Part shown: positions 31,901 through 38,923 of the stretch, piece by piece
Numbering within the stretch: position 1 is the stretch's first letter
Layout: every line of letters starts with the position of its first letter
Origin: Impatiens glandulifera
Lineage: Eukaryota; Streptophyta; Magnoliopsida; Ericales; Balsaminaceae
Direction of reading: 5' to 3'
Length of the DNA stretch: 64,000 bases
Assembly: GCF_907164915.1 (NCBI RefSeq)
Contig: NC_061862.1
Coordinates: 122,725,533 to 122,789,532 of the forward strand
Notes under the pieces: generated by a model
The model's input: the letters and a program-made list of their open reading frames with translations, nothing else
Told to the model about the DNA's origin: nothing
The model's database searches: none
Position numbers and translations under genes: made by a program

Positions 31901-32163
31901 AGTCCCCAATTTTCTGTGACAACACAAGTGCCATTGCGATTACATACAACCCGGTTCTCCATTCCAGAACCAAGCACATCGACATAAGGCATCATTTCAT
32001 TCGAGAGCATGTCACGCTGAAGCATATCCGGCTGGAATACGTACCCACCGATCAACAAGTAGCCGATATCTTCACAAAGCCTCTACAGGAAGCTAAGTTC
32101 TCTCAATTTAGACTTACTCTCGGTTTAACCGACATCAGTCAGATCCTTCCTAAGGATACTTAA
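28888..32163 (+). CDS. pol: Pol polyprotein of the copia element (protease-integrase-RT-RNase H), one in-frame TAG
   Basis: One frame throughout, interrupted only by TAG at 30376-30378 (CAG TAG GAA), lying in the variable linker between integrase and RT. Domains: aspartic protease WFLDSGCSRHMTG (about 28972); GAG-pre-integrase with LWHKRLNHLN and CSACQMGK; integrase core LLHMDLFGP (Asp), IRSDRGTEF (Asp) and PQQNGLAERRN (Glu); RT with ARLVAQGYKQEEGIDFEE, VFQMDVKSAFLNGD and the catalytic QIYVDDIIFGS (about 31195); RNase H with SYSDADYAGC and STAEAEYLAA. All catalytic residues that I can recognise are present, so loss of activity, if any, would come from the single stop. The frame opens at 28879; whether it is read by splicing, frameshift or new initiation (ATG 28927) is open. 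Confidence 0.93.
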
Positions 32164-32531
32164 AAGGAAAACCGGCTTCGACAGATAAAACAGGTAGTTC
32201 TTCTTAAGCTGCTGATCTTTGAATTCTCAAGATGCCTATGGAAGAACCGCCCAGCTCATCAGACAGAGTAAACCGACCGGCTACTTGGTGGAAACACCAG
32301 CTAACCGCATCGGGATGAACAACTGATGACTGACCGGTTCGGAAGCAGGTCATCCCAGATTATTTGAATTTCACAGATGTGGAACAACTACCAATGTTTA
32401 TAGATATCTGTTCTGAAATGTTGCCTTTTCAAAGAAAACTGGTCGCGCCTAAAAAGACGTGAAGATCTTTTGATATCTTTCATGGTTCAGGCCTATGACC
32501 GACACCTAGACTGCAAACATACCCATTTTGG

Positions 32532-32558
32532 AAAAAAAAAAAAAAAAAAAAAAAAAAA
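32532..32558 (+). repeat. A-tract downstream of pol
   Basis: Twenty-seven consecutive A residues within the 540-bp spacer between pol and the first accessory gene. It may mark the reverse-transcribed end of a captured mRNA, or be simple slippage; no further sign supports either. Confidence 0.85.
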
Positions 32559-32626
32559 CTTTTATCCTGCAGTTAATACATGTCATTCCATTTAATGCCT
32601 GGACAATAGGGTAGCCCCTAAACTAG

Positions 32627-32634
32627 TATTTAAG
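32627..32634 (+). promoter_or_regulatory. TATA-like box of accessory gene A
   Basis: TATTTAAG, 67 bp before the ATG at 32701, followed by an A/C-rich leader (CACTCACCACAAAACTCAC). The geometry matches that upstream of accessory genes B and C. Confidence 0.5.
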
Positions 32635-32700
32635 AGAGGGTAACACTCACCACAAAACTCACAAGTCACAAGAATACTCTCTCACTAAGGCAAACTAACC

Positions 32701-35778: not shown

Positions 35779-38607
35779 ATGGGTCGTGATGCGGTATTGT
35801 TCAAACTATACTCTCAAGTGGACTTTGATGAGATTCGGCAACATGGAACAACCGAGGCAAAAGACGTAATTGACCGACTCATTAAAACCGGTCTGGGATA
35901 TTTTCTGGAGGGACCTCACGTAATCTACAAGAACGCGGTTGAAGAGTTCTTCAAAACCGCAACCGTTTCCTACGACAGGATCCTCGCAACGGTCTGCGGC
36001 TCCCAAATAGAAATCACAGAAGCCGTAGTGGCCGAAAGCCTGCATCTCCCAACTACCGGTATGGACGCAACAGCAGAGATGGACGACGACGTTTTTAAGA
36101 TGGCTTGCCGCCGTGTATCAGCAACAAACAATCCGGTTCCCACATCCGGAAAGAAACAACTGCTGAAACCGGAGCTCATCCCGGCGTGTGACGTTTTTGC
36201 CAGGGCGATACTGGCAAGAGGAGGAAATTTCAGCAATCTGACCAAGGACAAAATCAGAATGATTTTTCGTCTAATGGAAGGCACAGAGATCAACTGGGCA
36301 AGATCGGTCTTCGGCAATCTTATGGAAATGGTGAGACCGGACTCAGATAGGTCTTGGGGGTATGCAGTTCAACTCGGCAAGATCTTCTTACATCTAAAGA
36401 TCGATGTCGGTCCCGGTGTTGGAATACTAAAGCGCAGCATCATTCGATCAAGGCATTTTCTTCCAAGAAAGCAGTCGGCTTCCAGTTCCACAGGTGGCCG
36501 AAAGAAGAAAGCCGCAAAGAAAAAGACCCCGGCGAAAGAAAACACCGGAGGAAAGAGAAAAGAAAAGGTAGTTTTCGAAGACCTACCTCAACAAACAGAG
36601 GATGAGGAGTGGGCTGATGAGGAAGCCGATTCAGAGGGAATCGAAAACAGAACGGAACATGACGATGATCCTTCGGCTCAGAGTCCGACCGATGCCGAAC
36701 AAAGTTTCAATCCTGAGACAACCGAGGGTGAGGACGGGGTTGATGAAGGAGACGATGATGAAAGAGCCGATGATGGAAACCTCAGCAGGGAGGAAGCCGA
36801 CGAAGCGGAGGCCGAAAGACTAGCCCAGAATATCTTTCAGGGCGTTATCAGAAGAGACGAGGATGTCATTGACCTATATATGGAGTGGCATGAGTACCGG
36901 TTTAATACAAAGTATAAAGACATCCTATCGAATCACTCGCAAGAACACTGCATTGCCAGATTGGAGGAAGTGGAGGACAATATCCTACGTCTCACCAAAT
37001 CCAATACCATTCAGGAAATACAATGCCGAACTTGCCTACTGATACCGAGAAGTCATCTTCGACAGATAAGAAGGCGTATCAGAAAGATTAAGGAAGAATA
37101 TGTCAAAGGGGGATCGGTGTCTACTGTAGCACCGCTAGTATTAGAAAAGCTCGAAAAGGGCAAATCGGAAATACGCCAAGAGATAGCGCGGTTAGAAGCT
37201 ATCTGCAATCAGAAACAAGTTCCGGTGTATACCGCTCCGGTCATTGAAGATTTTCAAATAGACTGGACAACAGAGGACACTGTGACACCGAGGGACATTG
37301 AGACACCACCGCCAGAAAATGATGAGGTACCGACTTCGAAGTCTGTTGAGGTCCAAACTTTGGAGGATGCGGTTCCAAACCCAGACGATGCGGTTCAAGA
37401 CCTGGAAGCTGAGATACCGACATTGGGAGTTGAAGCTCCAAACTCAGAAATTGAGGTAATAAACTTAGAGGATTCGGCTCAATTAGAACCTCCAAATGAA
37501 GAGGAGGCACCGATAAATCTTGACGAAAGAGCCGATCCAGATCCTACCAAGCAGTCCCATCCTACACCATCTCCGGTAGTCACCGCTCCAGCGCCCCCTC
37601 AGGAATGGATTGATGACCTCTTTCAAAAATTTGAAGTAGTTGTTTCGAAGCGGATTGAGGACCGACTCCGGCAGTTTGACACTTCAGTATCAGAGAAGAT
37701 TGATGACCGCATACTTGACCACAACGTCTCCAAGCTTCAACCACTCAAGGATAGATGCGAAAACATTTTCGATACGGCTATGAAGTTCGCCAATGCGACG
37801 AAGCTGGTTGTGGATCACACTCAAACACGCCTGGAGCAACTCAGCACCGGACTATGGGAAGAGGCCGGTGAGCGACAAAACTGTGCTCAGCATATTGTAG
37901 CTCTGGAGGGTCTCACGTCGGAATTAAAGAAGGATTTCGAACGGGTCGACCCAGCAATTGAACGAGTCTCGGCACTGGAAAAGAAGAACGAAGATCTCGT
38001 GGCCGAAGTAAAGGCACTTACTGCGCAGATGGCCGAAATCCTGAAAGCTAAGGAAGCCGCGGATGCCGCTGCTATAGAGGCCGATGCTCTGGTTGCTAAG
38101 AGAGTCCAGGAAAGGCTAGACGCCGAGGTTAGCAGAGACAAAGAGGCGCCACGAGCGACTCAGCTGACCGAAGACGAAATAGAGGCCGAAAGAATAAGAA
38201 GGGCTGAGATCATGTATCCAGGATATGCTGAGAAATTGGCAAGACAGGTTGCAGCGGATGCCGAACGTTTAGAAACGGAGCAACGAAGGCTGACAGGGTA
38301 TGCAACCGAAAATGAGAAAAAGAAGAGGGCGGCCGCCTCTGATTCAGCACCGGGCGCCTCCGCCTCAGCACCAAAGAAAAGAAAGAAGTCGGCTCCTAAG
38401 AAAGTTCGGATTGTGGAGATGATCAATACTATTTCTGACCCGGTCGAGACGGGTACTTCGCAGCAAAACGACCAAGTCGAGGATGAATTCGAAGAACAGC
38501 TGCGGTACCGTTCTAAACGACCACGACACTCCACGCAACAGCAACCGCAACCGCCACCGCAACCGAAGAGAAAGAAGAGTGCCTACGAATTCACGGACTC
38601 AGAATAG
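35779..38607 (+). CDS. Accessory gene C of the copia element (942 aa)
   Basis: Intact single-exon frame ending 0.3 kb before the 3' LTR. Residues 1-235 are the accessory domain (LYSQVDFDEI, TGLGYFLEGP, VEEFFKTATVSYDRILATV, INWARSVFGNLMEMV). Residues 236-265 are Lys-rich with nuclear-localisation-like clusters (GGRKKKAAKKK, GGKRKEK). Residues 268-345 are strongly acidic. A middle segment (345-480) has WHEYRFNTKYKDIL and a basic LRQIRRRIRKIKEE helix. Residues 490-600 are Pro/Glu/Val-rich and disordered-looking. Residues 610-860 are predicted-looking coiled coil rich in Glu, Lys and Ala. The tail has two more basic clusters (APKKRKKSAPKK, PKRKKSAYEF). The composition suggests a nuclear, self-associating, nucleic-acid-binding protein; this is inference. 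No enzymatic motif. Other possibilities include a captured host gene or an env-position gene, but no membrane segment is visible. Confidence 0.85.
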   Translation: MGRDAVLFKLYSQVDFDEIRQHGTTEAKDVIDRLIKTGLGYFLEGPHVIYKNAVEEFFKTATVSYDRILATVCGSQIEITEAVVAESLHLPTTGMDATAEMDDDVFKMACRRVSATNNPVPTSGKKQLLKPELIPACDVFARAILARGGNFSNLTKDKIRMIFRLMEGTEINWARSVFGNLMEMVRPDSDRSWGYAVQLGKIFLHLKIDVGPGVGILKRSIIRSRHFLPRKQSASSSTGGRKKKAAKKKTPAKENTGGKRKEKVVFEDLPQQTEDEEWADEEADSEGIENRTEHDDDPSAQSPTDAEQSFNPETTEGEDGVDEGDDDERADDGNLSREEADEAEAERLAQNIFQGVIRRDEDVIDLYMEWHEYRFNTKYKDILSNHSQEHCIARLEEVEDNILRLTKSNTIQEIQCRTCLLIPRSHLRQIRRRIRKIKEEYVKGGSVSTVAPLVLEKLEKGKSEIRQEIARLEAICNQKQVPVYTAPVIEDFQIDWTTEDTVTPRDIETPPPENDEVPTSKSVEVQTLEDAVPNPDDAVQDLEAEIPTLGVEAPNSEIEVINLEDSAQLEPPNEEEAPINLDERADPDPTKQSHPTPSPVVTAPAPPQEWIDDLFQKFEVVVSKRIEDRLRQFDTSVSEKIDDRILDHNVSKLQPLKDRCENIFDTAMKFANATKLVVDHTQTRLEQLSTGLWEEAGERQNCAQHIVALEGLTSELKKDFERVDPAIERVSALEKKNEDLVAEVKALTAQMAEILKAKEAADAAAIEADALVAKRVQERLDAEVSRDKEAPRATQLTEDEIEAERIRRAEIMYPGYAEKLARQVAADAERLETEQRRLTGYATENEKKKRAAASDSAPGASASAPKKRKKSAPKKVRIVEMINTISDPVETGTSQQNDQVEDEFEEQLRYRSKRPRHSTQQQPQPPPQPKRKKSAYEFTDSE

Positions 38608-38714
38608 GGACTATCCTTCTTTTTCTTACTTAACTTAGTATTTTTGCTTAGTACTTTCCGGTTATCTATGAATATATAAAGTTATTTTTGAATACCGGCC
38701 TTACTTTGCATTTC

Positions 38715-38773
38715 TACATGATTTTGATAATTTTAAATAAAATAATCAAAAAGGGAGAAATTGTTAGATAAAA
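38715..38773 (+). repeat. Upstream duplicate of the polypurine tract and LTR start
   Basis: TTTTGATAATTTTAAATAAA, then ATAATCAAAAAGGGAGAAAT and TGTTAGATAAA occur here and again at 38882-38935. The second copy is the true polypurine tract and LTR start. The first is therefore a decoy: a complete tract followed by the first 11 LTR bases. Confidence 0.9.
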
Positions 38774-38908
38774 GATAGAGATTCCTCCAAAAACCCCTCC
38801 CTCAAAATTTCTCGAAAATTATCTAAGTCTTTTTCAAAATCGGCCAAACAAAACAACCGGCCTACGGTTGCAAACTTACATAATTTTGATAATTTTAAAT
38901 AAAATAAT

Positions 38909-38923
38909 CAAAAAGGGAGAAAT
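38909..38923 (+). promoter_or_regulatory. Polypurine tract of the copia element
   Basis: AAAAAGGGAGAAAT immediately precedes the 3' LTR (38924). It primes plus-strand DNA synthesis. Confidence 0.9.

What the first reader, a model, noticed from the sequence alone, without database searches (positions are those of the whole stretch)
32163..38923. Copia retrotransposon carrying a cluster of three paralogous accessory genes, each with its own promoter
Between the RNase H end and the 3' LTR lie three genes (A 32701, B 33917, C 35779) sharing one domain (QVDF ... TGLxxFL ... V.EFF.NA ... (I/V)NW...F.TL) but strongly diverged. Each is preceded at 67-111 bp by a TATA-like box and a CT- or AC-rich leader, so they look like autonomous transcription units inside a retroelement. 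Ordinary copia elements end with pol. Seen: the frames, shared motifs, TATA boxes. Inferred: independent expression and a role in the element's life cycle.
Basis: partly seen in the sequence, partly recalled or inferred. Interest (0 to 1): 0.92.

Follow-up and report, generated by a model that had tools for sequence, protein, structure and literature searches.

The report
Retrotransposon with three paralogous accessory genes
A family of plant jumping genes carries, besides its usual replication genes, three old sister genes that selection keeps intact, that probably each have their own switch, and that are swapped between copies like cassettes; what they do is unknown.

Summary
Between pol and the 3' LTR lie A, B and C, ancient paralogs with weak PF20167 matches. 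It is no one-off capture: all 98 scored RT copies have cassette genes downstream, and A, B and C form separate clades. All are under purifying selection (omega A 0.05-0.20, B 0.10, C 0.15-0.31). This copy's A is closed by an in-frame stop, and it alone carries a 661-bp duplication of B's end plus the C promoter. A TATA-like box precedes A in 30/30, B in 30/30 and C in 29/30 loci. Own promoters are likely for B and C, plausible for A, and unproven. Elements with near-identical pol (4-fold sites about 0.95) carry ancient, different A or C alleles (0.5-0.6) beside a near-identical B: modules are swapped, often with a break near TATA/leader. SIRE-lineage elements are known for 3' ORFs; in the papers seen I found no three paralogs each with a TATA box. 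Products are probably soluble accessory proteins, C perhaps nuclear; an envelope is unlikely. New variant of a known kind.

The parts
25655..25659 (.). target site duplication GTTAT, left copy
25660..27017 (+). 5' LTR, 1358 bp, TATA at 26350 (LTR position 691)
27018..27031 (+). 5' LTR/internal junction ATTGG + primer binding site TATCAGAGC
   Evidence: motif as in PMC2829016 section 12
27057..28901 (+). gag (PF14223), one CCHC knuckle
28918..30378 (+). pol, first part: Pol_BBD (protease-like, named by position) and integrase domains, in another frame than gag; ends at an in-frame stop in this copy
30379..32163 (+). pol, second part: RT (PF07727); RNase H by position only
32627..32633 (+). TATA-like box of A (TATTTAA)
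32701..33435 (+). accessory gene A; closed by a stop at 32983-32985 in this copy (pieces 32701-32982 and 32986-33432 searched apart)
33831..33837 (+). TATA box of B (TATATAA)
33917..34624 (+). accessory gene B, 235 aa, weak PF20167
34391..35056 (+). first copy of a tandem duplication (end of B + spacer + C promoter); extra TATA at 35006
35052..35718 (+). second copy of the tandem duplication; by spacing private to this copy among 135 B-C pairs
35668..35674 (+). TATA box of C (TATAAAA)
35779..38607 (+). accessory gene C, 942 aa: N-terminal shared domain, acidic and helix-prone tail, basic NLS-like clusters, C-terminal end KRKKSAYEFTDSE
38694..38772 (+). upstream copy of the polypurine-tract region (PPT 38748)
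38856..38923 (+). terminal polypurine-tract region (PPT 38910)
38924..40281 (+). 3' LTR, 1358 bp
40282..40286 (.). target site duplication GTTAT, right copy

Best explanation
A high-copy, recently active, SIRE-like copia family of Impatiens carries a fixed accessory cassette of three anciently duplicated genes (A, B, C) between pol and the 3' LTR. Each gene is a small transcription unit with its own TATA promoter and CT/AC-rich leader, so its protein can be made without splicing of, or readthrough on, the LTR transcript. The products are soluble accessory proteins rather than an envelope: A and B are single-domain proteins; C adds a long acidic, helix-prone tail with nuclear-localisation-like clusters, and probably acts in the nucleus, most simply on transcription or silencing of the element or on the pre-integration complex. 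During bursts, co-packaged elements recombine by template switching, so accessory modules of ancient allelic lineages are shuffled onto a shared pol backbone, with many crossovers near the promoters. Shown: cassette, paralogy, fixation among sampled copies, purifying selection, mosaicism, conserved TATA-like boxes. Inferred: transcription from those boxes, nuclear role, template switching as the route.
For: Fixation: of 98 scored RT copies, 91 have C, 4 more have B, and the last 3, fetched, have A and B; 135 of 150 B copies have C within 4 kb, 133 of these at 1100-1300 bp; A lies upstream of B in 30 of 30 loci. Frames: no internal stop in 147/150 B, 148/150 second pieces of A, 141/150 C domains; 113 of 150 C places list an open frame >=900 aa, 8 of them with a stop inside the domain. 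Selection, measured on genes not used to pick the loci: A 0.197 and 0.047, B 0.096, C domain 0.174; C tail 0.31; all bootstrap ranges below 1. Ancient triplication: A, B and C each one clade (99/97, 100/98, 100/100). TATA-like boxes: A 30/30 (24 at -74/-75, 6 at -95 to -113), B 30/30 (-84 to -95), C 29/30 (-100 to -117). In L061, whose RT 4-fold identity is 133/177, the promoter block is 61/68 for B against 94/123 just upstream and 60/68 for C against 55/77 just upstream. Mosaics: 4-fold identity of L009 to the window is RT 166/174, A 15/28, B 101/108, C 55/89. No 19-residue segment exceeds a Kyte-Doolittle mean of 1.4; the basic clusters sought occur only in C. An internal promoter for the Sirevirus ENV was hypothesised but not conclusively identified in 2010 (PMC2829016 section 20).
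Against: No RNA, CAGE or protein data. High identity before the TATA boxes is largely explained by the shared recent backbone; in L061 A's block is 54/68, no better than the spacer before it (190/236 and 118/146), and B's block (61/68) is no better than B's own ORF (644/708). A's box is TATTTAA, not canonical. B has AATAAA within 150 nt after its stop in 25 of 30 loci and C has one 129 nt after its stop in the window, but A has none within 250 nt in 30 of 30, so A may not end its own transcript. Crossovers are not always at promoters: in L009, L011 and L020 the replaced stretch runs from A's leader through the A-B spacer and B's promoter and leader to the B ORF. Copies came from best-scoring hits, so older and broken ones are under-sampled. 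Template switching was not observed; gene conversion would leave similar mosaics.
Confidence: 0.6

Rival explanations
1. A, B and C are expressed from spliced subgenomic RNAs of the LTR transcript, as proposed for env-like genes of Bagy2 and Athila; the TATA boxes are incidental and the CT-rich leaders are polypyrimidine tracts before 3' splice sites.
For: CT-rich leaders precede B and C; a TCACTAAG acceptor-like site is kept before A in the window and in L009. Splicing of env-like genes is reported or predicted for other plant elements (PMC7264820 part 1; PMC2829016 section 20).
Against: The AG in C's leader of the window is not kept in L009, and B's leader has no AG between the CT tract and the ATG, whereas a TATA-like box is kept in 30, 30 and 29 of 30 loci. 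No splice-site scoring was done.
Confidence: 0.22
2. A and B are alternative first exons that are spliced onto the tail of C, giving one protein with an exchangeable N-terminal domain.
For: Database gene models join an A-type (5 of 32) or B-type (4 of 32) domain to the C tail, 4 of these 9 at residue 13 of the tail.
Against: These look like automatic gene models and no RNA support was seen here; a GT at the A donor is present in only 8 of 33 copies; the second piece of A, most of it beyond that donor, is the most constrained stretch measured (omega 0.047).
Confidence: 0.06
3. The cluster is a one-off host-gene capture or a nested insertion in this single copy.
For: None found; only the 661-bp duplication is private to this copy.
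Against: All 98 scored RT copies have cassette genes downstream; the direct repeats of 40 bp or more found inside 32164-38923 are the 661-bp duplication and the PPT repeat.
Confidence: 0.01
4. The cassette encodes an envelope or movement protein in the sense of 'env-like', and three paralogs are functional variants of it.
For: Position (pol to 3' LTR, sense); Sirevirus ENV-like proteins share little beyond transmembrane and coiled-coil domains (PMC3414828 passages) and C has a helix-prone tail.
Against: No transmembrane-like segment in A, B or C; basic nuclear-type clusters and a conserved charged C-terminus in C instead. Cell-to-cell movement without a membrane segment was not tested.
Confidence: 0.1

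Closest known systems
Sireviruses / SIRE lineage of Ty1-copia (SIRE1, ToRTL1, Endovir1-1) with an ENV-like 3' ORF
   Same: CA/ATTGG-TATCAGAGC junction, C-rich stretch near the LTR end, TATA in the middle of the LTR, more than one PPT after the 3' ORF, sense ORF between pol and 3' LTR with a helix-prone tail
   Different: three paralogous ORFs; a TATA-like box before each; no AGGGGGAG PPT, no PPT inverted repeat and no enrichment of the CGG-CCG repeated motif found; no transmembrane-like segment; RT lineage not tested
Athila-type 3' aORF with Transposase_32 (PF20167), e.g. sunflower Athila 14 ORF(+)
   Same: 3' position, sense orientation, match to the same Pfam family, predicted nuclear signal (PMC11728184 passages)
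   Different: Ty3-gypsy element, one such ORF of 487 aa; matches here lie below the Pfam cut-off. [quoted passage not shown] its sources were not seen
maize Grande gene23
   Same: accessory gene between pol and 3' LTR transcribed from its own promoter, nuclear product (PMC7264820 part 2)
   Different: Ty3-gypsy (recalled), antisense, single gene; the proteins were not compared here
ONSEN recombination during bursts
   Same: a plant LTR retrotransposon family whose new copies are pairwise recombinants (PMC5668417 abstract)
   Different: here ancient accessory alleles are exchanged on a near-identical pol backbone; the ONSEN case was not compared beyond its abstract

Membership tests
Ty1/copia LTR retrotransposon | LTR pair with TSD, PBS, and integrase before RT in pol | tested here: met
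   integrase domain (PF00665) precedes RVT_2 (PF07727)
Sirevirus / SIRE lineage | 5' junction CA/ATTGG + TATCAGAGC | tested here: met
   against PMC2829016 section 12
Sirevirus / SIRE lineage | C-rich integrase signal about 21 bp before the LTR end | tested here: inconclusive
   CCAACCCCCGGTCC lies in the last 60 bp of the LTR and fits the description, but the published motif itself was not held
Sirevirus / SIRE lineage | TATA box near the middle of the LTR | tested here: met
   position 691 of 1358
Sirevirus / SIRE lineage | multiple copies of PPT AGGGGGAG near the 3' LTR | tested here: inconclusive
   two copies of AAAAAGGGAG after C and none elsewhere in the element, but AGGGGGAG is absent
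Sirevirus / SIRE lineage | inverted repeat around the terminal PPT | tested here: not met
   none of 8 bp or more at 85% in the stretch searched; three published elements also lack it
Sirevirus / SIRE lineage | CGG-CCG palindromic repeats in LTR and before ENV (13 published elements) | tested here: not met
   1 in the first 690 bp of the LTR against 0.72 in shuffles, 0 in the three linker spacers tested; CCGG is enriched in the first half of the LTR (10 against 2.04)
Sirevirus / SIRE lineage | RT/INT phylogenetic placement | not tested
   no reference copia RT set was on hand
PF20167 Transposase_32 | score above the curated cut-off of 45 bits | tested here: not met
   18, 32.3 and 25.4 bits, second piece of A none; of 10 relatives one matched, at 24.8 bits
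retroviral or env-like envelope | transmembrane segment | tested here: not met
   best 19-residue Kyte-Doolittle mean 1.4 or less in A, B, C; no dedicated predictor was run
gene with its own promoter | RNA starting just after the TATA box | not testable with these tools
   no RNA data

The most novel reading that the evidence does not exclude
A retroelement with a three-slot accessory cassette in which each slot is a separately promoted gene with several ancient alleles, and in which accessory modules are exchanged between elements, often at the promoter boundaries, while pol stays nearly uniform: a cassette-swapping system that would keep old variants of host-facing proteins in circulation during an arms race with host silencing.
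Probability: 0.3. Interest if true: 0.82.

Novelty: new variant of a known kind. Interest (0 to 1): 0.62.

Why it matters
How the 3' 'ENV-like' genes of copia elements are expressed, and whether they have a function at all, is unsettled: an internal promoter was proposed but not conclusively identified by 2010 (PMC2829016 section 20); a 2012 paper lists an internal promoter among the mechanisms, with sources I did not see, and calls the function unproven (PMC3414828 passage); and the eORFs of the SIRE lineage were judged so divergent that a function was questioned (PMC6317226 passages). Here one family offers three such genes under clear purifying selection, each with a TATA-like box, in many young copies. 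That makes both questions directly testable with RNA start-site mapping and promoter reporters, and the module swapping suggests a population-genetic reason for the extreme divergence of these genes.

Tried and rejected
Protein search with B alone: none of 155 candidates scored E <= 0.01. Profile of A, B and C: one hit among 3794 candidates, Impatiens again. Search with C: 32 hits among the 8000 candidates scored, all named Impatiens glandulifera. So no relative outside Impatiens was found, but these searches need exact 5-residue words, so this is weak evidence of absence. Profile against solved structures: best E 0.15, nothing.

First idea on the promoter footprint (the block before A's TATA nearly identical while A diverges) was that it proves constraint. 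Rejected as stated, because RT 4-fold sites of the same elements are also about 0.95 identical: the backbone is recent and A and C are swapped in. On the one diverged backbone tested, the B and C blocks stand above their upstream spacers and the A block does not.

First idea on the 661-bp duplication (older than the insertion because 14 substitutions in 666 against 4 in 1358, Fisher p=1e-4) was that the family carries it. Rejected: by spacing none of the other 134 B-C pairs has it. A chimera of two parental copies is possible, but neither half matches one of the 54 loci compared better than 98.8%.

An E2F-like TTTCCCGC occurs only in the two copies of the C promoter; the consensus is recalled and about two chance matches are expected in an element of this size, so it is not used.

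Full report
What is there. The element runs from 25660 to 40281 with 1358-bp LTRs that differ at 4 of 1358 positions and a 5-bp target duplication GTTAT. With a rate of 1.3e-8 per site and year (recalled) this is about 0.1 million years. Pfam finds copia gag, integrase and RT. The genome searched as 'own' has 653.9 Mb, and its nine long contigs have the lengths attached to Impatiens glandulifera proteins, so I take the species as I. glandulifera, an ornamental and invasive plant by recall (inferred, not stated by a tool). 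The junction CA/ATTGGTATCAGAGC and the TATA in mid-LTR fit Sireviruses; a C-rich stretch near the LTR end and two PPT copies behind C fit in kind; the PPT octamer, the inverted repeat and the CGG-CCG repeats were not found (criteria from PMC2829016, abstract, passages and sections 9, 12, 13, 20). RT phylogeny was not done, so I call it SIRE-like, not a proven Sirevirus.

Three genes. A, B and C share a domain of about 220 residues. The first piece of A, B and C match PF20167 (Transposase_32) at 18, 32.3 and 25.4 bits, below the 45-bit cut-off; the second piece of A does not. C adds about 700 residues: acidic stretches, a helix-prone region, basic clusters and an end KRKKSAYEFTDSE that is kept in 5 of 6 other copies (one residue different in L076), the sixth (L071) having its frame closed earlier. 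There is no membrane-like segment by hydropathy in any of them. A is closed in this copy by a stop at 32983-32985; in 27 other loci whose first A piece aligns in full the next codon is not a stop; L017 and L018 align only over 76 residues and were not counted; L020 and L030 have a stop elsewhere in A.

A fixed cassette, not a capture. B was found in at least 150 places (150 scored of 18055 first-look candidates, all 89% identical or more), 147 without stop. C domain: 150 scored of 18901, 141 without stop; 113 list an open frame of 900 aa or more, 8 of them among the 9 with a stop inside the domain. Second piece of A: 150 scored of 15907, 148 without stop. C lies within 4 kb of B in 135 of 150, at 1100-1300 bp in 133; the window with 1862 is the only larger distance and one is 1017. 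Starting instead from RT: of 98 scored copies (of 29229 candidates, all 99% or more identical), 91 have C, 4 more have B, and the remaining 3, fetched, have A and B, with B matched only in part in two of them (L062, which holds a run of N, and L063). All of these are best-hit lists and under-sample old or broken copies. Thirty-two database proteins resemble C, all named I. glandulifera; 5 join an A-type and 4 a B-type domain to the C tail, which agrees with the genes being neighbours elsewhere in that genome.

Selection. To avoid choosing loci on the gene measured, A and C were measured in B-selected loci and B in C-selected loci, using pairs with synonymous difference 0.01-0.5. Omega: A first piece 0.197 (0.115-0.312; 30 of 30 loci, 237 of 351 pairs; includes L017 and L018, whose alignment breaks), A second piece 0.047 (0.018-0.091; 24 of 30, 252 of 253), C domain 0.174 (0.120-0.245; 23 of 30, 227 of 253), B 0.096 (0.047-0.162; 27 of 30, 298 of 351). 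From six further C genes, picked by me mostly among places with long open frames, plus the window: domain 0.15 (0.12-0.22), tail 0.31 (0.26-0.36). A tree of 25 domains puts A, B and C in three clades (99/97, 100/98, 100/100) joined by branches far longer than those inside: the triplication is old. A and B pair only under the midpoint root.

Promoters. TATA-like boxes stand at -74 (A), -86 (B) and -111 (C) in the window. Across 30 loci each: A 30 (24 at -74/-75, six with longer leaders at -95 to -113), B 30 (-84 to -95), C 29 (-100 to -117). The copies are related, so these are not independent. In a copy with a diverged backbone (L061; RT 4-fold identity 133/177) the boxes are still there. Its promoter block of 68 bp scores 60 for C (upstream spacer 55/77 and 162/221, leader 78/104), 61 for B (upstream 94/123 and 170/201, leader 63/78, but B ORF 644/708), and 54 for A (upstream 118/146 and 190/236). 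So own promoters are likely for C and B and only plausible for A. B has AATAAA within 150 nt after its stop in 25 of 30 loci; A has none within 250 nt in 30 of 30; C has one 129 nt after its stop in the window. A may therefore be read through into B.

Module swapping. Elements with almost the same pol carry very different accessory alleles. Against the window, 4-fold degenerate sites agree in L009 at RT 166/174, A 15/28, B 101/108, C domain 55/89; in L002 at 167/177, 13/27, 104/107, 55/88; in L022 at 168/178, 14/27, 98/107, 3/7; the C338 element behind L046 has RT 160/176, C 98/107 but B 35/65. Fisher p lies between 9e-6 and 2e-10 for the contrasts made, except 3e-3 for B against C in L022. 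Saturated synonymous sites in A and C beside nearly unchanged ones in B and RT of one element are best read as mosaics of old lineages. In the segment table (14 loci against L004) identity falls from promoter block to leader in A from 0.94-0.97 to 0.65-0.68 in L002, L009, L020, L022 (L011: 0.82 to 0.65), and in C from 0.94-0.99 to 0.81-0.88 in the eight copies with the other C type; copies with the same C type also fall a little (to 0.89-0.97), so leaders evolve fast anyway. The 3' end of the replaced stretch varies: in L022 identity is back at 0.92 in the A-B spacer, in L002 at B's promoter (0.91), while in L009, L011 and L020 the foreign stretch runs through B's promoter (0.82-0.84) and leader (0.63-0.77) to the B ORF (0.95-0.96). 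High-frequency pairwise recombination during bursts is known for ONSEN (PMC5668417, abstract and outline only), and template switching is the natural route; gene conversion is not excluded.

Mechanism. I take the cassette to be a set of accessory, not envelope, proteins, made from their own promoters. Boxes, selection and mosaics are shown; transcription and the nuclear role are inferred (probability for own promoters 0.65; for a nuclear accessory role of C 0.35). Splicing from the LTR transcript is the main rival.

Literature. I searched the held library for Sirevirus env-like genes, Transposase_32 and PF20167, plant mobile domain (listing only), the Impatiens genome (listing only), internal promoters and additional ORFs, three ORFs between pol and LTR (listing only) and modular recombination. 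Seen: passages of PMC11728184, PMC6317226, PMC3414828 and PMC11963269; two of three parts of PMC7264820; passages and four sections of PMC2829016; the abstract of PMC5668417. In these: a 3' ORF in 74% of SIRE elements (PMC6317226); one own-promoter accessory gene (Grande gene23, PMC7264820); an internal promoter for the Sirevirus ENV that was hypothesised and not conclusively identified (PMC2829016) but is listed among expression mechanisms in PMC3414828; [quoted passage not shown] I found no description of three paralogous 3' genes each with a TATA box, but subscription papers were not searchable, so this is no proof of priority.

Noticed in passing
27057-32163; genome-wide RT places: gag and pol are in different frames, and 77 of the 98 RT copies list a pol open frame of 1076 or 1093 codons, so the frame separation looks like a family feature and raises the question of how Gag-Pol is made.
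   Followed up: partly
30376-30378: This copy has an in-frame stop between integrase and RT; its listed open frame is 594 codons against 1076 or 1093 in 77 of 98 copies.
   Followed up: partly
34960 and 35622: TTTCCCGC (E2F-like by recall) occurs only in the two copies of the C promoter; not more than chance allows for one site.
   Followed up: no
G000:C9:38692846 and 38694360: Two A-like genes lie 1.5 kb apart, perhaps another duplication in a cassette.
   Followed up: no
41381-43354, minus strand: Long open frame with F-box/LRR-like protein about 1.1 kb from the element's 3' end (named by eye, not searched).
   Followed up: no
48000-51000 and 57000-59000: Blocks of strong opposite GC skew (down to -0.68 and up to +0.67) with diverged tandem repeats, perhaps an inverted pair.
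   Followed up: no
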